Assembly: GCA_024398815.1 (NCBI GenBank)
Contig: JAKSIL010000011.1
Coordinates: 1-64,000 of the forward strand
Reading direction: 5' to 3'
Length of the DNA stretch: 64,000 nt
Origin: Fibrobacter sp.
Lineage (GTDB): Bacteria; Fibrobacterota; Fibrobacteria; Fibrobacterales; Fibrobacteraceae
The notes under the pieces: generated by a model
The model's input: only the letters and a program-made list of their open reading frames with translations
Databases searched by the model: none
Told to the model about the DNA's origin: nothing
Shown here: positions 47,561 to 59,816 of the stretch, piece after piece
Layout of the letters: every line of letters begins with the position of its first letter
Numbering within the stretch: the first letter of the stretch is position 1
Position numbers and translations under genes: made by a program

Positions 47561-48106
47561 ATGATTGAGAGGCTTCGTGAAAAGAAGGGATACACCCTTG
47601 TTGAGGTGTTGACGGTGGTGTCAATCATGGGCATTTTGTCTGCTATGGGCGTAGTGGGGTTGACCGGCGCTATCGAAAACTCGAAGCAGAAGGATGGCGC
47701 CATGAACGTGACTGAATTCCTGGCATCCGTTGCGGCGCAGTCGGTGCGAATGTCGGAAATGGTTTGTGTGAAGAAGGATGGCGCGAGCGGCCTTGTCGCT
47801 TACGCCTGCCCGAACGGAGCCAAAGGCGATGCAGGCGACGTTGTCGACCGCATAAAGTTTGACGATATTTTTACGATCGGTTGCCCCGAAGGCGTGACGA
47901 GCAGCCTGGATGGCGACGATTGGCTCAAGGATGATGGTGTCGCAGTATTCAAGCCGAAAACAGGCCTTGCCGCATACCCTGCGGAAGGTTTCGTGTGCCT
48001 GACGTATAAGGGCGGGAATGGCTACAGTGCAGCCGTTAAGACGGAATCGAACAACAAGCTTGTTTGGATGAAGCGTTCGTCCAATCAGGATTGGGCGCAT
48101 AGGTAG
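47561..48106 (+). CDS. Type IV pilin-like protein (FimU/GspH class)
   Basis: A 181-residue prepilin. The short leader 'MIERLREKKG' ends in Gly, then the mature helix 'YTLVEVLTVVSIMGILSAMG' with Glu at position 5, as required for assembly. The globular part has four Cys ('MVCVKKDG', 'YACPNG', 'IGCPEG', 'FVCLTY'). An AGGAGA site precedes the ATG at 47561 by 6 bases. First of four pilin-like genes that run in order FimU-, PilV-, PilW- and PilX-like. Confidence 0.85.
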   Translation: MIERLREKKGYTLVEVLTVVSIMGILSAMGVVGLTGAIENSKQKDGAMNVTEFLASVAAQSVRMSEMVCVKKDGASGLVAYACPNGAKGDAGDVVDRIKFDDIFTIGCPEGVTSSLDGDDWLKDDGVAVFKPKTGLAAYPAEGFVCLTYKGGNGYSAAVKTESNNKLVWMKRSSNQDWAHR

Positions 48107-48112
48107 GTTGTT

Positions 48113-48580
48113 ATGAGATTGAGTTTGTTTAAAAATAAAAAGGGAATCGGCATTACGGAAGCGCTTGTCGCTGCCGCGGTCCTCGGCTTTTTGTATGTGG
48201 CCGTATTGAATTTAAACAGCGGTAACCACCAAGCCATGCTGCGACTCCGCAGTAGGGACGCCGCCGTTGAAGTGGCCCAGGTTGTTCTGGACTCACTCAA
48301 GAAGAACGGACTCTCCATGCTGCAGTCCAGCTACGATGCCGACACGACATTTACAGGCCTTACCTACAAGAAGTATTGGGCTCGTCAGTATGGCAATGAT
48401 TCTTCGGCCATCGACTACGATACGGAACTGACTGTCTTTGCGGATAAGAACTTTGAGTCGGACGCTTCGTCGCTTTACAAGGAACAGAAAGTCGTATATG
48501 CAAAGATGGTGAACGTGAAGGTCAGTTGGCAATTTAACGGGTCTACGCAGTCCATCAACGTATCCGATGTGATTCGCTAA
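48113..48580 (+). CDS. Type IV pilin-like protein (PilV/GspI class)
   Basis: A 155-residue prepilin. After 'MRLSLFKNKKG' the mature helix 'IGITEALVAAAVLGFLYVAV' carries Glu at position 5. The small globular domain ends 'VSWQFNGSTQSINVSDVIR'. It starts 6 bases after the first pilin gene. Short size and position match the PilV/GspI subunit of minor-pilin sets. Confidence 0.82.
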   Translation: MRLSLFKNKKGIGITEALVAAAVLGFLYVAVLNLNSGNHQAMLRLRSRDAAVEVAQVVLDSLKKNGLSMLQSSYDADTTFTGLTYKKYWARQYGNDSSAIDYDTELTVFADKNFESDASSLYKEQKVVYAKMVNVKVSWQFNGSTQSINVSDVIR

Positions 48581-48601
48581 ATTGGAGAGGGTGGAAGTTC
48601 T

Positions 48602-49972
48602 ATGATGATGTGGAAAGACCATAAGCAGATGACGGGAACGGCTGTAGCGAAAGCCGGTTTTACCTTGATGGAATTGATTGTCTATATCGCCATCGCAGGG
48701 ATTGTCGCAGTCTTGGCGGGTCAGGCCTTTAGCGACAGCACCAAAATGCGCGTGCGTACCGAGAGCATGATCGAGGCGAATGAAGCCTCGGGCGAAGTGG
48801 CTCAGCTGATGAGGCGTGACCTTTCTTTCATCGGTGCGAAAAATGCGAAGAATGTCGCCGGTGCTGCCGCTGGTGTTGCGGGCGCTGCGGGAGCGGCTGG
48901 TGCTGGTGGTGATAACGATGCCTTTACGAGTTATTCCGAAGTCTATATGGATCCGGAAGGCGGGGATTCGTCTTCGTATACTCTGACGAAGGGCGCACCA
49001 TACGATGCGATTACCATGAGGCGCCTGCGCTACAATGACGACGGAAGCTACGGTTCCATCGAAGAAATTACCTGGCGCGTCAACGAAAAGAATTTGGTTA
49101 GAAGCTGCAGGACCATGCAAGGAACTCCGGATGAAAGTTGCCCGGGCGAAAATGGCAGTACGGTAACCATTGCGACGGGCGTTGAAAATTTTAAAATTGA
49201 AGAAGCCCTGCCTAGGACGGATGGAGAAGTGGTGCATATCAATATGCTGCCGGCTGCGGACGAATCGAATGATTTCCGTTTTGTTTCCCGGTTTGGTGAT
49301 GGCAATTTCAGCCCTGTAGAAACGGATCCTGTGGGTGGCGGACCGATCGTCACTCTCCGCGGTTTTTCCACTAATTTCGACAGGCATACTGGCAGATACG
49401 AGGATAATCCCGAAAACATGAAGCTGAACCAGGTGTTCCTGGCTGAAGCGAACAATGCAGAAGGCTCTTGGCAGACTTTGTGCAAAAGCGTCGATTTGCA
49501 TGCAGACTCCGCATACGAGGTTTCTTTTTCGATGCCCGACAACGGTGAAAACGTAAGTCGCATGTTCTGCCCTGGTCGCGACCACATGTCCGTTGGTTTC
49601 CGCTACATGGAGAATGGCGACGAAGTTCCGTTCTTGAAGGATTTTCTGTTCTTCCCGCCGACGGGTGCCGGCGACGACCTTGGCGTTCGCAAGATGCGTT
49701 TCGTGCCCTCTAAAGACGCCGAGAAAGTCTGCCTTGCTTTCACGTTCGTTAGCTTCTCGCCGATTACGGCCGCGGGCTCCGTACGTTTTGAAAACGTGAA
49801 GCTCAAGAGGGTTTCGACATCGGCATTTGAATTCAACGAGACGGGAACCGTTGCGTCGAACATCAAGAAGTATGTGAAGGCGTTGAGGGTGACGTTTAAA
49901 AAGTTGGTCAATGGCAATGGCGCGATAAACTCGTTTGTAATCCCGATTCCGAGCAATGGAACGGCGGATTAG
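48602..49972 (+). CDS. Type IV pilin-like protein (PilW/GspJ class)
   Basis: A 456-residue prepilin-like protein. After 'AKAG' the mature helix 'FTLMELIVYIAIAGIVAVLA' has Glu at position 5. The ectodomain is larger than usual for PilW/GspJ, with an Ala/Gly-rich stretch near 85-108 and a jelly-roll-like middle ('DLHADSAYEVSFSMPDNG', 'VRFENVKLKRV') similar to a carbohydrate-binding sandwich. A middle region 'LAEANNAEGSWQTLCKSVDL' fits that idea. It starts 21 bases after the previous gene with GGAGAGG upstream. Confidence 0.8.
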   Translation: MMMWKDHKQMTGTAVAKAGFTLMELIVYIAIAGIVAVLAGQAFSDSTKMRVRTESMIEANEASGEVAQLMRRDLSFIGAKNAKNVAGAAAGVAGAAGAAGAGGDNDAFTSYSEVYMDPEGGDSSSYTLTKGAPYDAITMRRLRYNDDGSYGSIEEITWRVNEKNLVRSCRTMQGTPDESCPGENGSTVTIATGVENFKIEEALPRTDGEVVHINMLPAADESNDFRFVSRFGDGNFSPVETDPVGGGPIVTLRGFSTNFDRHTGRYEDNPENMKLNQVFLAEANNAEGSWQTLCKSVDLHADSAYEVSFSMPDNGENVSRMFCPGRDHMSVGFRYMENGDEVPFLKDFLFFPPTGAGDDLGVRKMRFVPSKDAEKVCLAFTFVSFSPITAAGSVRFENVKLKRVSTSAFEFNETGTVASNIKKYVKALRVTFKKLVNGNGAINSFVIPIPSNGTAD

Positions 49973-49985
49973 TGAGGAGGAAGTT

Positions 49986-52900
49986 ATGTTCTTGAATAAA
50001 AAAGGTGTATCCATAGTAGCGGTTCTTCTCTTCATGATGGTTGCAACCATCGCAGGAACTGCGGCGTTCAAGTGGCTGACTTCCGAAGGGCGGTCGTCGG
50101 CATCGCGTATGGCTCAACAGTCGGCGTACAGTGCGGCAATGGCTGGCATTGACAACGCCCGCGCATGGATGACAAACAACGGCCATGACGTTGGTGGCCT
50201 TGTCCGCCAGTATTTCGAGGGTGGCAAGAATCCCATTCTTCTGGACAACGTTCTGTCGCAGGGGGATGTTGGTCGCAATTATCATGTGTGGTTGACTGGT
50301 GTGGATGCCTCCAGCGCTCGCTACAAAATGAAGATTCTTTCTAAAGGATGGAAAGCTCAGGATTCTACGAGCTCGTACAGGGCTGTGGCTATTTTGGAAG
50401 TATCGGGACTTTATCGAGTGGCTCTTCCGGTGCAGCAGGCTCGCGTCAGGGCTCTGCCGTTTAACTACACGTATTTTGGCGGCACGATGAAAAACCATGG
50501 CACAGCGAACCTTACGTCTGTGCTTATCAACGGTAACTGGGAAGGCAACCCGAACCATGTCGGCGAAAACTTTATCGTGACGGGAAACGCCCAGCTGTCG
50601 GGTAATGATATCGACATTGGTGGTACGGCCTGCATTGGCGGAAATTTGAATGTCGACAACGGTATGGATGTCACGGACATTTATGTTTATGGAGAAACGA
50701 AAAATTTCGGCATGAAGACAAGAGGTGTGAGCAACAACGCCTTTTTCGATGGCCCAGTCACCCAGGGGAACAAGGGTGGTGTCCGTATTGGCGGTAACTT
50801 GACTTCTACGAACATTATCAATACGCACCAGGGCGCCGGTTCGTATTACTTCACGGTAGAAGGCAACATGTGCCTCGAAGATACGGCTCAGGTTCGCATA
50901 GGAGCGGCCCAGACGAACGGAGCGGCAACGGGCAATGCCCAGTTTGCTGTGCCCTTTACGGTCAAGGGCGATGTGTGGATTCCGATTCACAACAGTTTCT
51001 TTAACGTGTCTTCGAAAAACAACTCTACATTGGAAGATTTCTCGTCGGTTTACAATATGATTCTGCTTGGCGATAATTCGAATTCCAAACTTTACATCGC
51101 CGACGGGCATCCGTATGCAGACTATAAGAATATGAGAGATGCCAAGAGCTTCATAGAAACGAATGGAATGAACAAGACGAATACGACGGGTGAAAAGTGG
51201 ACTGGCGAAAAATACAGTCCGTATGTCTATGTCCCTCAAAAAGACGACATGTACTACTTCTACTATGTGGAACCCGGCATCACGGATGTTGATTTTGTGA
51301 AAACTGCCGATAATCTGGCCAGGTACTATGTCGGTGGGCAACCGATTCGTAATAACATGCGTAACGAGACTAACGAGTACCATTACGGCTCTGGCGTACC
51401 CTATAAAAAGTCTCCGTATTGCAAACTCGGAAATGAGCAGCGCCCCGAATGCCATGTGGCGCCGTGGTTCCAGTCAAAGGGAACGCTTTCGAACAATATG
51501 AGCGAATCCAACAAACCGGAGTGCGCAAAAGCGGTCAAGGATGTTTGCGACGCTACCTGGGAAAAACGCCCTGGTTGCGACGGTTCCAAGTTCTTTGTGC
51601 CCGACATGATTAAGACTGCCTATGACGTGTTCAAGGACTATGCCAACAAGGGTTGTGCAGCCAACATCACCAAGTGGGGTGGAAACGTTGCCCGTCAGTT
51701 GAACGACTGCTATTCAAAAATGCTGGAAAGCGAAGATTCCCGTAAGAACAATCTGTACAATGGCTACCTTGTCGTCAATATTACGAGCTTTGAAGATTCC
51801 GGCGATGAAACTTACCTCAACGGGCGCTTTATCGTGATTATTTCTGGTTCTCCGACTACGATGAAGTTGCCGCCGACTCTTGATGAAGAAGAGCAGAAGG
51901 GCTACGTGTTCATGTACGTGAAGGAACGCATGTTGCAGAACGCCCAGATAATGCCCGCAAAAGACCAGGCTGGTGTCAACTACAATTACTTCATTTATAC
52001 TTTGAGCAATCTTGGCGGTGGCGCGGAAAATCCGAATTATGACCCCGTCAGGTGCCAAGCAGAGTGCTGGGTTCCAGCGTGGAATTCCTATGACTACAAC
52101 TGCCAGCAAAAATACTGCAGAAAATCGACGGGCGACCAGAAGGTGATGTTCAACAATGCTACACTGCATGGTTCCTTCTATGCCGTGGCTGAAAAGTGTG
52201 CCAAGATTCCGGATTTGATGTTGAAGTCCTCCGTAAGCAATGAAGAAATGGTGGCCGACATGACCGACAACTTGATTATCTGTCCCATTGACCAGCAACA
52301 TTGTGGTGGTATTCGCGATCCAGGGGACGGTAATAATGGTGGGAATAATGGAGGCAATGGCGGAAATGGAGGCAATGCCGGTGGCGCCGGTGGTGCTGGT
52401 GGTAACGCTGGCGGTAACAATGGCGGATTTGACTCGTACTACGTAGCCATGGCAACGCAGTTGGATGTTTCTCTGGTTTCGCAGTACGAAGCCGAAGAAC
52501 GCCAGCCTCAAGTCTATGACGAAGTGACGCCGTCGTATGTAGTTTTGCCGCGAATCATTTACATTACCCAGGATCCTGATGGAACGCTTTCCGACTATTT
52601 CAGCGTGGTTAATGTCAATGGCGGCAATGTCGAGAAGGAAATGCAAAATGTCACTTGCGAAGGAAACATTGCCACTACCGGTGAATTGCGACTGAATAAT
52701 GGGGATTTCATTCCGGAAGACCATTACAAGTGCGAATACACCCCGAGCGAAGGCGATTACGGAACGGTGCCGTTCTACCTTGTGGTAAATGGCTTGAAGG
52801 ATGCAACAGCAGATGTAAGCTTTGTCGAAGATGATGTCGAAGTTGAGTCCGGCACGACGAAAAAGGTTTCTGTAAGTCTTTCGCCGGTCAATAGTGGAAA

Positions 52901-55900
52901 TGAGGCGATGTTTGACGTGTCGGTCTCTCAACCGCCCTCAGGATGGACTATCACTCCGGCTGCTAATGTGGAAGTGCGTGGAGGAGGCGCTGGTGGCAAG
53001 ACCTTCTACAAGGTTATTGCTCCGATTAGCCAGGACGGCACTGTCAAGGATTTGTTCACTGTGACATTATCGTCTGATGCGGTTGCAGGAAATCTCTATT
53101 TCCAGCTGTCGTCTCCTTATAGCGCATGCTTGCCGGTGGACCCGAAGTACGCGAGGTTGTACAAGGTGGGCGATGCGACTGTCGTGCGCAGTGACCTGAA
53201 GACGTATTGTAACCTTTACAAGGAAGTTTGTGAAGAAAAGGGATACGATACGAAGAAAAATATCCCTGATTGCAACGACGGTGGGCTGTTGTCGACTTCT
53301 GTGGAATGGGTACGCGCTCAAGGAGACGAGTGCCATGAGCAGGCTCTCAACGAATCCTGGAAGTGCAAAACGTCTGCGTTGATAAAACTGTCGTCGGATA
53401 ATACCGGTGTTCCTGCGTATTGCGAGGTCATTATTCCTACGGAGAACAACAGCGTCGATAATCCGACAAGCGACCAGACGTATACACTTTATGCATCGGT
53501 GAAGAAAAAGAAATTCCCGGTGAAAGTCGATTTGGATGGTGCCCAGGACCCGAAAACTGCTGTTGTCGTGAAGTTCATCAGCGGCGAACGCGCTGGAGAA
53601 ACGGAGAAGTGCACTGCCGAGGATGCGAAAAAAGACTTGTGCGTTTATCAGGTCTATGCGGGTGACAGGCTGGAACTTTCTCACGAAGACAAGGGCGATG
53701 ACGAAAACCTGTTCAGTTATTGGACATGTTCCGGAACCAACTGTCCCGACGAAAATACCTATTACGCAAATATTTCCGTTTGGTCTTATCCGATTATTAC
53801 GGGAGACAATAAAATTATCGCCAATTTCAATAAGCATGACGAGCATTGCTTCTACGAAGACTTTGACGGGATGACGGCGTTCTGTGGCCCCGGTCAAACG
53901 CACTGCATAGATACTTGCAGGACTGTTCTTTCGAAGGGAGAGATTTGTGCAGCCAACGATGGAGCACAGGGCGGCGCTGCCGACTGGCTGATGGCGTTCA
54001 ATAATGCCAAGAAGGGCGATGCGCATCTGAAACCTCCTAAATTCAGTGAAGAAGGTGGTATCTATACCGAAAATACGAATAATGCGAACAACCAGAATGG
54101 AACCCAGTCCGTGATTTTCAGTTCCAGGGACGCAGGCCCGTATGGTGAAATGACGGCCATGTTCAATACGACTATCCTTAAAAAGGCGAATGGTAATGAC
54201 TTCTTGAATACGGGTCTTGTGTTTAGAGGAAAAATTGATGGGAGTAATTCTGAGTTCCTTATTTTGAACGTGTTCGGTGTGGGTAGCGAATCTAGTGCGC
54301 CGCTCTATGCGCGTGTGTGTAAAGTTGTTGGTCACAGCATTAACAACTACAATTCCGGGGATTGCCAAAATACGAGAATCTTTGGCTTGACGGTCTCGCC
54401 TACGGATATGGTGAAGATTTCCTTCACGCTTTCGGAAACAGATATCATGAGTCTTACGGCGCAAGTTGGCTCGTCAAAGGCGTATGCGACATTTGACTTG
54501 AGTCGGTACAATACAAATGATGAATTCCATAGACATGTCGGTTTCGACTTGTCGGACAAGGCTCTTTCGTTGTATGATATTGGCTGGCAGTCCAGTTCGT
54601 ATACTGAAAACTGCTTTGACGTTCCGACGGTCATGTGTTCGTTCAAGGCTAACTATATTGGCGGTCGTGTTCCGTTGGACGAAGATGTTTCTCCGTGGGT
54701 GGGCGTTTCCAGCTGGTTTGAAAGCAATAACTGCACTAAACTGTACTACTACAACGGTTGTGACAACAGTACGTCTTTGGAATATTGCAGTGGAATTATG
54801 ACGACGAAGAATCTTGAACTTCGCGACTCCATTTACCATTTCACAGAGAGAGGACAACATGGCGGTGCGACCAAGGATGCTAAAATCAAGATGAGCTGCC
54901 CGGGAACGCAGTCCAGCCTGGAGCTTTCAAATATGCTGTATAGCTGTGGTACTTTCTTTGTTGGGAATCAGGATAACTGCTCAGAACACGTTAGCATTTT
55001 GTCTGACACGAAACGCAGTAGCGGAACTACGGATATGGTTATCCCCGTGGGTGATGACCCGCTTCACGCAAAACGCAAAAATTTCCGCGGGGCAGAGCTC
55101 GTCATTGACGTGGAGTTCTATACAGCAGGAGACATTGAAGTGTTTATGGTTTCGGAATCGGGTATTGGTTCTCGCAAGGAAAGCTTGCCGGCCATGATTT
55201 CGGAGAGTGGAAGGCATTCTCTGAATGTCGATGTCTTGTCCAATGTGAATGGGTTCGATCCGGGCTCTGTCAAGGAAATTGTGATTCGCAATTCGGGCGC
55301 GTCCTTTGACGTGAAATATATTGCGACTCAGTGCCCGTATGTGTTGGGTATCGAATGCGGCATGCCAAAATTTAATCAGAGCTCGGGTAAGTGGGAATTC
55401 TCGACGCAGTTGTCGGGGGTAGCTTCGGCGACTTGCGATGCGACTTCTGCCCTGGGCGACAAAACGGGAGTCAAGTGCTCGAGCTATCAGAACTGGTCGT
55501 TCGGTTACGAAGGAAAGACGACACAGGAACTTCTGGACAAGATGAATAGTGAGGGACTTGAACCGGTGAAATTCAAAGTGGAAGCCTCTGTCAATGGTAA
55601 CACTGCAGAATGCGAAGTGACGTCAAATAATATTGAACCGATGAAGGACATTGAATGTAGTGTCGCTGGCGAGTCTGTGACACAGGGATCCGGAGTGCCG
55701 TCGTTCAAGTTTAAGATAGATTCTGGCACTTGCCCTGAAACGGGATGCCCTTACACGGTGACTTTTGGAGGCGTAGAAGTTCTTAATGCTTCGGCAAGGT
55801 CTGGTGAAGAGCAGACCGTGTCGGCACCCAATAACTCCAGCGGTAACGCTTTGTCTGTAGGTAGCTATACCTACAAGGTGGAAAGCTATGGAAAATCTTG

Positions 55901-57491
55901 TTCAAGGTCGGTAAAAGTGGTAAAACCGGAAGGACAGGCGCCGACTGGTGTCACTTGCAATGTTGACAATTCAGGGTCGCTTACTGCAAATATCACCAAT
56001 CCGGACAATGTGACATACAGTTATGCATTTGCCGTACATGATGGCATCGGCAACAGTTTGTCGACACCGCAGACAGGTACGTCGAATGCGACTTCGTTGA
56101 CATTTACCGAGGCCCCGCCCAATGCCGCTGGCACGTATAAGTATGTACTCAGCATACAGTATAACGGCAGCAAGCAGGAATGCGCTCCCGCTTATACCGT
56201 CAGCAATCCGATATCGGCAACTTGCCCGTCTTCGACAATAGAAGTGGACGAAGGTTCAAGTGTGCCGGCTAGTGTGACGACGGCTGGTTGCGAGTCTGGA
56301 TGTACGTACAAAGTTTTGACATCGGGTGGACTTGAAAAAACGAGCGGTTCGATTAGCAACAATCAGGCTTCGTTCTCCTTTAGTGATGTGAATGCTTCGG
56401 GCGAAAATACCTACACCTTCAAGGCGACAAGAACCAGTGACAGCAAGACTGCGGAATGCCCGATAAAAGTAGATTTTATATCTACAACGGGAGATTGCCA
56501 TTGCACTTGTTCCAGTGGATGCAGTCATGTGATTACCTCTGGATGGAATTCGGGCAATACAAGCGGTTGCTACTTTACAAAGACGGGTGATTTTGTTGGC
56601 CCCTATGCGGGTTCCAAGGTGAGCATTAACGGAAGGGATTTTGTGGATACTCATGTTGGCTGGAGTGATGTTGCAAACGTTCCTAAAGTGGATGGAGGTT
56701 GGTATATCCAGTTTAAGGATTTCCGTTCGGGCGCCAATGCTGATTTTGATGGTGGAACTCCGAATTGTGCCGGAGGCTCCGATCCTACGCCGGAAAGCAG
56801 CGCTAGTGTCGCAAGTTCGAGTGCCGCGGCCGGCTGTCATTGCTCGGATTACTGCTCTACTGGGTGCGGTAGCTTGCAGACTAATGGCGGCAATGGCGGT
56901 GGTGGCTCCGTAAGCAATGCGTTCTGCTTGTTCACGACGAAGGTCCTTACCATTAATGAAAACAATGATAAGTACCCGATATACGTTAATGGAATTAGAA
57001 CATACTATTGCGATGGCGAATCGTCTTGTGCCACCAGCATTAGAAACCATAACGTGCCTAAAGTGGATGGAGGCTACTATATCCAAGTTCCCCAGGCTGG
57101 TGAATGGATTAAGGTTACCGGAACTTCCGGCACGCAACCTGATTGCTCTGCTGGAATTGGTGGCGGTTCCGATGAATCTAGCTCCAATTCGGGTTCTGGT
57201 TCTGCTTCCGGTACTGGAGGGAATGCACAAAAGATTGATAATTGGAGTAATGGAGTAACTCTTAATCCGGGTGTTTATGATGTTTCCCAGTGCAACAATT
57301 CCGGTTCTGGTGCGCGTCAGATGCAAATTTATTCGACCGTTTCGAACTGCTGGAGCCTTGTGTCGACAGCTTCTGGTACGGGATATTGGAACAATAGAAG
57401 CGGAAATTGCGATGGTCAAGCAACCGTTACGTTCCCGACTCGTGTGACGGTTCCTGAAGGCACTACTGTGAATTTGAGAGGCTGCTGGTAG
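49986..57491 (+). CDS. Giant PilX/GspK-like protein with multidomain ectodomain
   Basis: A 2501-residue protein. The ATG at 49986 follows GAGGAGG. The N-terminus 'MFLNKKG' and helix 'VSIVAVLLFMMVATIAG' look like a prepilin, but position 5 is Ala instead of Glu, as in tip subunits GspK/PilX. The first 790 residues include a PilX-like part and a beta-helix-like stretch (about 165-300). A Gly/Asn-rich linker follows (about 778-815). Later parts include an InlB-like repeat (about 1170-1285, 'YWTCSGTNCPDE'), a LamG-like beta sandwich (about 1285-1540), three Ig-like units (about 1888-2168), two Cys-rich repeats (about 2168-2387) and Ser/Gly linkers. It is rich in Cys throughout. The likely role is a surface adhesin at a pilus tip; this is inferred from order and domains. 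Substrate is unknown. Confidence 0.8.
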   Translation: MFLNKKGVSIVAVLLFMMVATIAGTAAFKWLTSEGRSSASRMAQQSAYSAAMAGIDNARAWMTNNGHDVGGLVRQYFEGGKNPILLDNVLSQGDVGRNYHVWLTGVDASSARYKMKILSKGWKAQDSTSSYRAVAILEVSGLYRVALPVQQARVRALPFNYTYFGGTMKNHGTANLTSVLINGNWEGNPNHVGENFIVTGNAQLSGNDIDIGGTACIGGNLNVDNGMDVTDIYVYGETKNFGMKTRGVSNNAFFDGPVTQGNKGGVRIGGNLTSTNIINTHQGAGSYYFTVEGNMCLEDTAQVRIGAAQTNGAATGNAQFAVPFTVKGDVWIPIHNSFFNVSSKNNSTLEDFSSVYNMILLGDNSNSKLYIADGHPYADYKNMRDAKSFIETNGMNKTNTTGEKWTGEKYSPYVYVPQKDDMYYFYYVEPGITDVDFVKTADNLARYYVGGQPIRNNMRNETNEYHYGSGVPYKKSPYCKLGNEQRPECHVAPWFQSKGTLSNNMSESNKPECAKAVKDVCDATWEKRPGCDGSKFFVPDMIKTAYDVFKDYANKGCAANITKWGGNVARQLNDCYSKMLESEDSRKNNLYNGYLVVNITSFEDSGDETYLNGRFIVIISGSPTTMKLPPTLDEEEQKGYVFMYVKERMLQNAQIMPAKDQAGVNYNYFIYTLSNLGGGAENPNYDPVRCQAECWVPAWNSYDYNCQQKYCRKSTGDQKVMFNNATLHGSFYAVAEKCAKIPDLMLKSSVSNEEMVADMTDNLIICPIDQQHCGGIRDPGDGNNGGNNGGNGGNGGNAGGAGGAGGNAGGNNGGFDSYYVAMATQLDVSLVSQYEAEERQPQVYDEVTPSYVVLPRIIYITQDPDGTLSDYFSVVNVNGGNVEKEMQNVTCEGNIATTGELRLNNGDFIPEDHYKCEYTPSEGDYGTVPFYLVVNGLKDATADVSFVEDDVEVESGTTKKVSVSLSPVNSGNEAMFDVSVSQPPSGWTITPAANVEVRGGGAGGKTFYKVIAPISQDGTVKDLFTVTLSSDAVAGNLYFQLSSPYSACLPVDPKYARLYKVGDATVVRSDLKTYCNLYKEVCEEKGYDTKKNIPDCNDGGLLSTSVEWVRAQGDECHEQALNESWKCKTSALIKLSSDNTGVPAYCEVIIPTENNSVDNPTSDQTYTLYASVKKKKFPVKVDLDGAQDPKTAVVVKFISGERAGETEKCTAEDAKKDLCVYQVYAGDRLELSHEDKGDDENLFSYWTCSGTNCPDENTYYANISVWSYPIITGDNKIIANFNKHDEHCFYEDFDGMTAFCGPGQTHCIDTCRTVLSKGEICAANDGAQGGAADWLMAFNNAKKGDAHLKPPKFSEEGGIYTENTNNANNQNGTQSVIFSSRDAGPYGEMTAMFNTTILKKANGNDFLNTGLVFRGKIDGSNSEFLILNVFGVGSESSAPLYARVCKVVGHSINNYNSGDCQNTRIFGLTVSPTDMVKISFTLSETDIMSLTAQVGSSKAYATFDLSRYNTNDEFHRHVGFDLSDKALSLYDIGWQSSSYTENCFDVPTVMCSFKANYIGGRVPLDEDVSPWVGVSSWFESNNCTKLYYYNGCDNSTSLEYCSGIMTTKNLELRDSIYHFTERGQHGGATKDAKIKMSCPGTQSSLELSNMLYSCGTFFVGNQDNCSEHVSILSDTKRSSGTTDMVIPVGDDPLHAKRKNFRGAELVIDVEFYTAGDIEVFMVSESGIGSRKESLPAMISESGRHSLNVDVLSNVNGFDPGSVKEIVIRNSGASFDVKYIATQCPYVLGIECGMPKFNQSSGKWEFSTQLSGVASATCDATSALGDKTGVKCSSYQNWSFGYEGKTTQELLDKMNSEGLEPVKFKVEASVNGNTAECEVTSNNIEPMKDIECSVAGESVTQGSGVPSFKFKIDSGTCPETGCPYTVTFGGVEVLNASARSGEEQTVSAPNNSSGNALSVGSYTYKVESYGKSCSRSVKVVKPEGQAPTGVTCNVDNSGSLTANITNPDNVTYSYAFAVHDGIGNSLSTPQTGTSNATSLTFTEAPPNAAGTYKYVLSIQYNGSKQECAPAYTVSNPISATCPSSTIEVDEGSSVPASVTTAGCESGCTYKVLTSGGLEKTSGSISNNQASFSFSDVNASGENTYTFKATRTSDSKTAECPIKVDFISTTGDCHCTCSSGCSHVITSGWNSGNTSGCYFTKTGDFVGPYAGSKVSINGRDFVDTHVGWSDVANVPKVDGGWYIQFKDFRSGANADFDGGTPNCAGGSDPTPESSASVASSSAAAGCHCSDYCSTGCGSLQTNGGNGGGGSVSNAFCLFTTKVLTINENNDKYPIYVNGIRTYYCDGESSCATSIRNHNVPKVDGGYYIQVPQAGEWIKVTGTSGTQPDCSAGIGGGSDESSSNSGSGSASGTGGNAQKIDNWSNGVTLNPGVYDVSQCNNSGSGARQMQIYSTVSNCWSLVSTASGTGYWNNRSGNCDGQATVTFPTRVTVPEGTTVNLRGCW
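56492..57150 (+). repeat. Two Cys-rich repeats in the giant pilin-like protein
   Basis: Two units of about 95-105 residues start 'CHCTCSSGC' (56495) and 'CHCSDYCSTGC' (56833) and both contain 'VPKVDGGWYIQ/VPKVDGGYYIQ' and end in Pro-x-Cys. They are joined by a Ser/Ala linker ('SSASVASSSAAAG'). At DNA level the CCTAAAGTGGATGGAGG core is identical in both. Confidence 0.75.

Positions 57492-59816
<2,325 letters not shown>

What the first reader, a model, noticed from the sequence alone, without database searches (positions are those of the whole stretch)
47561..57491. Minor-pilin operon ending in a 2501-residue PilX-like tip adhesin candidate
Four pilin-like genes run in the order of known minor-pilin sets (FimU, PilV, PilW, PilX). 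The first three carry Glu5 in the mature helix; the fourth has Ala5, as in tip subunits. Its ectodomain is about ten times larger than normal PilX/GspK and carries beta-helix, InlB-like, LamG-like, Ig-like and Cys-rich modules with Gly/Asn and Ser linkers. In other bacteria the tip adhesin is a separate PilY1. Here the tip pilin and adhesin seem fused, possibly for binding plant fibre.
Basis: partly seen in the sequence, partly recalled or inferred. Interest (0 to 1): 0.85.

Follow-up and report, generated by a model that had tools for sequence, protein, structure and literature searches.

The report
Giant swappable pilus-tip proteins in Fibrobacter
Bacteria of the plant-fibre-digesting family Fibrobacteraceae carry a type IV pilus whose tip subunit appears to have grown into a giant, probably adhesive arm of about 2,000 to 3,200 amino acids with a highly variable end, travelling with one partner gene as an exchangeable cassette, which offers a testable answer to how these bacteria grip plant fibre.

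Summary
A FimU-PilV-PilW-PilX-type operon (47561-57491) ends in a 2,501-residue pilin that has Ala at mature position 5, good ribosome-binding sites and a terminator just downstream. It is not a one-off. Relatives of this giant occur in nearly all Fibrobacteraceae genomes: 76 of 80 in the genus, 1-4 copies each, 72 complete examples of about 1,930-3,200 aa. In 84 of 84 testable cases a Glu5 PilW-like gene lies directly upstream; the giant never has Glu5. In many genomes FimU-PilV stay at the recJ locus while one to three PilW-giant cassettes sit elsewhere, so the tip cassette is a separable unit. AlphaFold models residues 8-830 as a pilin plus a large beta-solenoid, closest to cellulose-binding tapirins (Z 15.7) and the pilus-tip receptor ComZ (Z 12.5). 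A ConA/lectin-like domain and an Ig/Fn3-like stalk follow. The scaffold is conserved to about residue 2160; the C-terminal head is hypervariable and mosaic, even between near-identical proteins. Best reading: a giant modular type IVa pilus tip adhesin of PilX/ComZ type with interchangeable heads. Ligand binding, tip location and export are untested. Fused adhesive pilins are already known, so this is a new variant of a known kind.

The parts
47561..48103 (+). FimU/GspH-type minor pilin (PilH-like), Glu5, 181 aa
   Evidence: N_methyl 26 bits, over cut-off; GspH profile weak; conserved family A6
48113..48577 (+). PilV/GspI-type minor pilin, Glu5, 155 aa
   Evidence: weak GspI/ComGE match; family A5 found in 97 of 111 Fibrobacteraceae genomes
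48602..49969 (+). PilW/GspJ-type minor pilin, Glu5, 456 aa; the obligate upstream partner of the giant
   Evidence: N_methyl over cut-off, GspJ weak; PilW-like gene directly upstream of 84 of 84 giants
49975..49980 (+). Shine-Dalgarno AGGAGG for the giant, just after the PilW stop codon
   Evidence: sequence
49986..57491 (+). giant PilX/GspK-type modular pilin, 2,501 aa, stop codon included
49986..50006 (+). class III leader MFLNKKG (cleavage expected after Gly7)
   Evidence: sequence; conserved in A1/A2
50007..50435 (+). pilin module: long alpha-1 helix and three long beta-strands; most conserved part of the family
   Evidence: AlphaFold DSSP H3-71, E90-100, E106-116, E123-139; mean pairwise identity 0.53 against 0.05-0.25 elsewhere
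50454..52298 (+). beta-solenoid module with long loops (residues 157-771), tapirin/ComZ/ice-binding-like
   Evidence: VIA-align Z 15.7 to 4wa0, 14.8 to 6n2b, 12.5 to 6qvi
52329..52424 (+). Gly/Asn-rich disordered linker (residues 782-813)
   Evidence: pLDDT below 50
52428..52472 (+). 15-residue strand (residues 815-829) that may return to and close the pilin sheet (inference)
   Evidence: DSSP strand E808-822 in the model; conservation rises again at 807-906
52476..53888 (+). conserved beta-rich region 831-1301 (not modelled; possible Ig-like and InlB-like repeats)
   Evidence: alignment A7; scattered weak Pfam hits
53898..54605 (+). ConA/L-type-lectin-like domain (residues 1305-1540)
   Evidence: similar to Aap A domain 8deo, Z 9.1, 184 aligned, 4.3 A
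55347..56486 (+). stalk of tandem Ig/Fn3-like beta-sandwiches (residues 1788-2167)
   Evidence: Foldseek and VIA matches over model residues 485-866
56487..57488 (+). hypervariable C-terminal head: two Cys-rich modules, Ser/Gly linkers and a terminal module ending in W
   Evidence: conservation collapses after about residue 2160; mosaic between close relatives
57520..57546 (+). intrinsic terminator (11-bp stem, T-rich tail) ending the operon

Best explanation
The giant is the Glu5-less cap (PilX/GspK position) of the minor-pilin complex that primes a type IVa pilus. FimU-PilV-PilW-giant assemble first, the pilus grows beneath them, and the giant's beta-solenoid, lectin-like domain, Ig/Fn3 stalk and variable C-terminal head stand out at the tip as the adhesin. 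It probably grips plant-fibre polysaccharides while PilT-driven retraction pulls the cell in. PilW plus giant form an exchangeable tip cassette on a common FimU-PilV base, and the head diversifies by segmental exchange. Shown here: gene content, linkage, conservation, mosaicism and predicted folds. Inferred: assembly order, tip location, adhesion and ligand.
For: Class III leaders in all four genes; Glu5 in the first three and Ala5 in the fourth; across 84 giants position 5 is T, A or V, never E, and the partner always has E5. AlphaFold (pLDDT 85) gives a long helix, three long strands and a solenoid matching ComZ and tapirins. T4aP genes in the same genome: PilM, PilO, PilQ, PilB with a c-di-GMP motif, PilC, two PilT. 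The genome's two other secretin loci have their own K-type proteins of ordinary size (412 and 321 aa), leaving this set as the likely one for the T4aP. FimU-PilV separated from one to three PilW-giant cassettes. PilW and giant pairwise distances correlate at r 0.69, and nearest neighbours agree in 47 of 74 cases. Abrupt head replacement between near-identical giants.
Against: No experiment. Fold similarity to tapirins and ComZ is not sequence homology: Foldseek gave no match at E<0.001 and the PDB sequence search did not list them. The head could not be modelled (pLDDT below 50 over most of it). Assignment to the T4aP rather than a T2SS-like system is by elimination in an 86% complete genome. 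The giant would have to pass the secretin. Published F. succinogenes expression data show only modest pilin induction on cellulose (PMC4668043).
Confidence: 0.68

Rival explanations
1. It is the tip (GspK-like) subunit of a type II secretion pseudopilus or an accessory filament, and the large ectodomain recruits or threads secreted enzymes rather than serving as an adhesin on a long pilus.
For: Profiles for genes 1-3 look as much like GspH/I/J as like pilins, and NF037980 GspK matches weakly and in one relative at 1.5e-4. Fibrobacter secretes many enzymes (own knowledge).
Against: A separate system in the same genome already has its own ordinary K-, I- and J-like pilins beside its ATPase, with a secretin nearby, and a third locus has a 321-aa K-like protein. 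A 2,500-aa cap with a hypervariable head fits a surface ligand better than a conserved secretion job.
Confidence: 0.14
2. It is a tip DNA receptor for transformation, as ComZ is in Thermus.
For: ComZ is among the best fold matches (Z 12.5, 240 residues) and has the same plan of a GspK-like pilin with a beta-solenoid and a neighbouring partner pilin (PMC6561018).
Against: Another 1,700 residues of lectin-like, Ig-like and variable modules follow, with nothing comparable in ComZ. A hypervariable head is not expected for DNA binding. A third, small filament locus (L140) is a better candidate for DNA uptake.
Confidence: 0.08
3. The variable head is driven by phage or by other organisms rather than by plant fibre: it is a recognition or evasion surface for pilus-tropic phages, kin or protists.
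For: Hypervariable, mosaic heads fit diversifying selection. Two loci in the same genome resemble filamentous prophages, a phage type that often uses pili.
Against: No direct link between these prophages and this pilus. A head may vary because fibre ligands vary. It can be true together with adhesion.
Confidence: 0.1

Closest known systems
ComZ of Thermus thermophilus (PDB 6qvi; PMC6561018)
   Same: GspK-like pilin with a large beta-solenoid, partner pilin gene next door, argued to sit at the pilus tip as a receptor; third-best fold match (Z 12.5)
   Different: ComZ is far smaller (about 507 residues in the solved chain), binds DNA, and lacks the lectin-like, Ig/Fn3 and variable C-terminal modules; no multi-cassette arrangement is described in the passages read
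Tapirins of Caldicellulosiruptor (PDB 4wa0, 6n2b; reviewed in PMC7142884)
   Same: best fold match to the solenoid (Z 15.7 and 14.8); beta-helix cellulose adhesins of cellulolytic bacteria; genes next to a type IV pilus locus (own knowledge)
   Different: no detectable sequence similarity in the PDB search; much smaller; not known as pilins as far as could be read here
Modular adhesive pilins PilB and PilC of Streptococcus sanguinis (PMC8179133, PMC9934059)
   Same: adhesive modules (vWA, ConA-like lectin) grafted on a pilin, placed at the tip by modelling
   Different: small, bimodular, monoderm; the survey of modular pilins used the Glu5-type N_methyl signature (IPR012902), so Glu5-less PilX-type giants fall outside it
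FimU/PilV/PilW/PilX plus PilY1 tip complex of diderm T4aP (PMC7541494, PMC10191384)
   Same: same four-gene order and a cap subunit without Glu5
   Different: PilX is small and the adhesin is the separate PilY1 protein; no PilY1 found here (control did not ring)
PilV shufflon of IncI plasmids (own knowledge)
   Same: pilus-tip adhesin with an exchangeable C-terminal segment
   Different: no recombinase or silent cassettes seen next to the giants; variation here is between strains and species

Membership tests
PilX/GspK (K-type) tip minor pilin | class III signal peptide, hydrophobic helix, no Glu at mature position 5 | tested here: met
   A5 in the window; T/A/V in 84 of 84
PilX/GspK (K-type) tip minor pilin | last gene of an H-I-J-K (FimU-PilV-PilW-PilX) set | tested here: met
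   window order and conserved operons
PilX/GspK (K-type) tip minor pilin | scores above the curated PilX_N or GspK cut-off | tested here: inconclusive
   window PilX_N 13.1 of 25.5 bits, GspK 13.4 of 130; 25 of 63 relatives match PilX_N at E<0.01
PilX/GspK (K-type) tip minor pilin | located at the filament tip | not testable with these tools
   needs imaging or proteomics
ComZ-type pilin with inserted beta-solenoid | beta-solenoid carried by the pilin fold | tested here: met
   AlphaFold model and 6qvi Z 12.5, 240 residues; return of the chain to the pilin sheet is inferred from DSSP only
ComZ-type pilin with inserted beta-solenoid | DNA binding and competence | not tested
   no experiment
Tapirin | tapirin beta-helix fold | tested here: met
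   4wa0 Z 15.7, 298 aligned, 3.9 A; ice-binding proteins follow at Z about 11
Tapirin | sequence homology to tapirins | tested here: inconclusive
   profile A2 against PDB sequences lists no tapirin at E<=1
Tapirin | binds cellulose | not testable with these tools
   needs a binding assay
Modular pilin in the sense of PMC8179133 | N-terminal pilin module with extra non-pilin modules | tested here: met
   models and fold matches
Modular pilin in the sense of PMC8179133 | N_methyl (GFxxxE) signature used in that survey | tested here: not met
   no PF07963 hit in the giant
PilY1/PilC tip adhesin | PilY1 beta-propeller PF05567 in the giant | tested here: not met
   no hit
PilY1/PilC tip adhesin | separate PilY1 elsewhere in the genome | tested here: inconclusive
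   0 of 168 phylum genomes, but no control genome rang either

The most novel reading that the evidence does not exclude
Fibrobacteraceae have replaced the PilX plus PilY1 tip of the type IVa pilus by a family of giant pilins delivered as exchangeable PilW-giant cassettes on a shared FimU-PilV base. Their mosaic, rapidly replaced C-terminal heads set substrate specificity, making the retractile pilus a main adhesin of the most important rumen cellulose degraders.
Probability: 0.35. Interest if true: 0.87.

Novelty: new variant of a known kind. Interest (0 to 1): 0.73.

Why it matters
Cellulose degradation by Fibrobacter needs close contact, and the adhesin question is old. The F. succinogenes genome paper saw only a few pilin genes and thought the pilus set incomplete (PMC3079729), later work counted standard T4P genes (PMC4704652), and none of the papers read here describes these giants. 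If right, the family supplies a concrete, deletable adhesin, explains how a thin pilus could grip crystalline fibre, shows how far a tip pilin can grow (to about 3,200 residues), and gives an evolutionary system of swappable tips and heads in gut ecosystems that matter for feed use.

Tried and rejected
Chance ORF: rejected by full-length homologues. Plain membrane anchor: rejected by the predicted long strands after the helix. PilY1 fusion: no PF05567 in the giant. Pfam and PDB sequence searches on the middle and C-terminal parts gave only scattered weak hits. Foldseek alone gave nothing significant for the N-terminal model; the viral structure library gave nothing significant either. A shared C-terminal Trp was considered as an export signal: 30 of 73 complete giants end in W, so it is enriched but not universal. 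Silent C-terminal cassettes (a shufflon) downstream were considered: the window's next gene, 97 bases on, is isocitrate dehydrogenase, and none were seen in the loci read. PilY1 absence could not be proved because no control genome rang. F. succinogenes S85 itself was not found among the loci fetched. The GspK pilin fold was not listed by the aligner, whose list was filled by the solenoid.
Full report
What is there. On the + strand, four ORFs with class III prepilin leaders follow each other: 47561-48103, 48113-48577, 48602-49969 and 49986-57491. Each is preceded by a purine-rich ribosome-binding site; the last has AGGAGG at 49975-49980, right after the PilW stop. An 11-bp-stem terminator at 57520-57546 closes the unit. 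The first three mature sequences carry Glu5; the fourth begins VSIVA, that is, Ala5. The fourth is 2,501 residues long. Profiles place genes 1-3 with GspH/GspI/GspJ-type pilins, weakly, and 25 of 63 relatives of the giant match PilX_N. The neighbours are housekeeping genes: ftsX, an M23 peptidase, a DNA polymerase III delta-type subunit and recJ upstream, isocitrate dehydrogenase downstream.

How general it is. A profile of the giant's first 500 residues finds relatives in 102 of 168 genomes of the phylum. Nearly all strong hits are in the window's own family (Fibrobacteraceae by the named loci). Within the genus 76 of 80 genomes have a strong hit, and the other four are at most 81% complete. 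There are one to four copies per genome; the window's genome has one. Named records include Fibrobacter succinogenes MAGs, F. intestinalis ATCC 43854 and many Fibrobacter MAGs from rumen, horse and other herbivore guts. Seventy-two complete giants range from 1,933 to 3,195 residues. In all 84 cases with enough upstream sequence a 400-500-residue Glu5 pilin of PilW type sits directly upstream, and the giant has T, A or V at position 5, never E.

Cassettes. Many genomes have PilW-giant pairs without FimU-PilV beside them, in tandem or divergently. A PilV profile shows that these genomes keep one PilV elsewhere, for example G104, G105, G060, G069, G077 and G087. Reading those places in G104, G105, G060 and G077 shows PilV (with FimU evident in G105 and G077) next to recJ, the same neighbourhood as in the window, while the PilW-giant cassettes lie elsewhere, in some genomes beside what looks like pheS. 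So a FimU-PilV base and a PilW-giant tip are separable genetic units, and one base can serve one to three tips. PilW and giant evolve together (distance correlation 0.69 with the pilin module; nearest neighbours agree in 47 of 74).

Architecture. AlphaFold with 63 sequences models residues 8-830 at mean pLDDT 85: a long N-terminal helix, three long strands, a beta-solenoid, a disordered Gly/Asn linker and a last 15-residue strand. The structural aligner ranks two tapirins first (Z 15.7 and 14.8), then the Thermus pilin ComZ (Z 12.5), then ice-binding proteins (Z about 11). ComZ is a GspK-like pilin with a beta-solenoid inserted in its sheet, argued to be a tip DNA receptor that binds its neighbour PilA2 (PMC6561018); the anatomy here looks the same up to about residue 830. 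Tapirins are cellulose adhesins with a beta-helix (PMC7142884). This is similarity of fold: no sequence link was found. The second model (residues 1302-2501) is confident to about residue 2167. Residues 1305-1540 resemble the lectin-like A domain of Aap (Z 9.1), and residues 1788-2167 are tandem Ig/Fn3-like sandwiches. The InlB-like claim rests on one weak match in one relative.

The variable head. Conservation holds to about residue 2160 and then collapses. The C-terminal parts, 0-744 residues, are built from a limited set of small, often Cys-rich modules in different combinations. Pairs of nearly identical giants differ abruptly there: L068/L069 are 98-100% identical up to residue 1800 but 47% in the head; L118/L119 go from 100% in the pilin module to 34%. 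At DNA level the replaced blocks are flanked by similar sequence on both sides, in L118/L119 with 94-100% identity resuming downstream. This is the pattern of segmental exchange. The last module also occurs in Ser-rich, lipoprotein-like proteins of the genus, so modules circulate among surface proteins.

Which machine. The genome encodes PilM, PilO, PilQ, a PilB with a c-di-GMP-binding motif, PilC and two PilT. Two further loci carry their own secretin and their own K-type pilins of ordinary size, 412 and 321 residues. Only seven N_methyl pilins were detected in all. By elimination the window's set belongs to the retractile type IVa pilus; this is inference from an 86% complete genome. PilY1 was not detected in 168 phylum genomes, but no control genome rang, so its absence is not proved.

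Mechanism. In type IVa pili the four conserved minor pilins form the tip complex that primes assembly, capped by the subunit lacking Glu5, and PilY1 sits on top (PMC10191384, PMC7541494). Here the cap itself is enlarged into a modular arm. The simplest account is that PilW-giant caps a FimU-PilV base, the solenoid and lectin-like domain plus the variable head bind fibre, and retraction brings the cell to the surface. The genes, the linkage, the predicted folds and the variability are shown; tip location, export, ligand and role in adhesion are inferred.

Against what is known. Fusions of adhesive modules to pilins are known (PMC8179133, PMC9934059), and ComZ has the same plan of pilin plus solenoid, so the kind is not new. 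New are the size, the PilX-type position in a diderm four-gene set, the exchangeable PilW-giant cassettes and the mosaic head, in a family whose adhesion to cellulose is a long-standing question (PMC3079729, PMC4668043, PMC6851124). None of the papers read here describes these giants.

Limits. Most relatives are MAGs. Repetitive heads are prone to mis-assembly, although the flanking identity in L118/L119 argues against it. Fold matches show no function. The region 831-1301 was not modelled, and most of the head could not be.

Noticed in passing
G000 contigs C22 (L141:7909-13035) and C38 (L142:9158-14478): Two loci that look like filamentous (inovirus-like) prophages: a Zot-domain ATPase (Pfam E 1.9e-12 in L141), a weak secretin-like gene and a 580-aa secreted protein in the adsorption-protein position. 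A pilus is a likely receptor for such phages.
   Followed up: partly
L163:70-1866, L164:264-1739: The giant's terminal module (about residues 2372-2501, ending in W) also ends Ser-rich, lipoprotein-like surface proteins in other Fibrobacter genomes.
   Followed up: partly
L172:6155-6619 (G101): A PilV-like gene left at the recJ-type locus has lost the Glu5 motif (SFGIAAIL), while a second PilV travels with PilW and a giant elsewhere; it looks like relocation with decay.
   Followed up: no
L109, L132, L133: Contigs binned as Bacteroidales or Paludibacteraceae MAGs carry Fibrobacter-type giants; most likely binning contamination.
   Followed up: no
L116:10001-12244: A giant cut to 742 residues by a stop codon; possible pseudogene or assembly error.
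   Followed up: no
window:46750-47295: A small secreted protein ([18 protein letters not shown]...) just upstream of the operon; a similar gene lies upstream of FimU in G069 (L171:8254-8844). Possible accessory factor.
   Followed up: no
G000:C15 (L059:10358-12304): The pilus extension ATPase PilB carries an MshE-type c-di-GMP-binding motif, so piliation may be under c-di-GMP control.
   Followed up: no
G000:C15 (L140:16502-19976): A third, small filament locus with secretin, a 321-aa K-like protein (weak DUF7305) and small pilins; possibly a DNA-uptake or unknown filament.
   Followed up: no
complete giants, C-termini: 30 of 73 complete giants end in Trp, often as C-x(2-3)-W; more than expected by composition, cause unknown.
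   Followed up: partly
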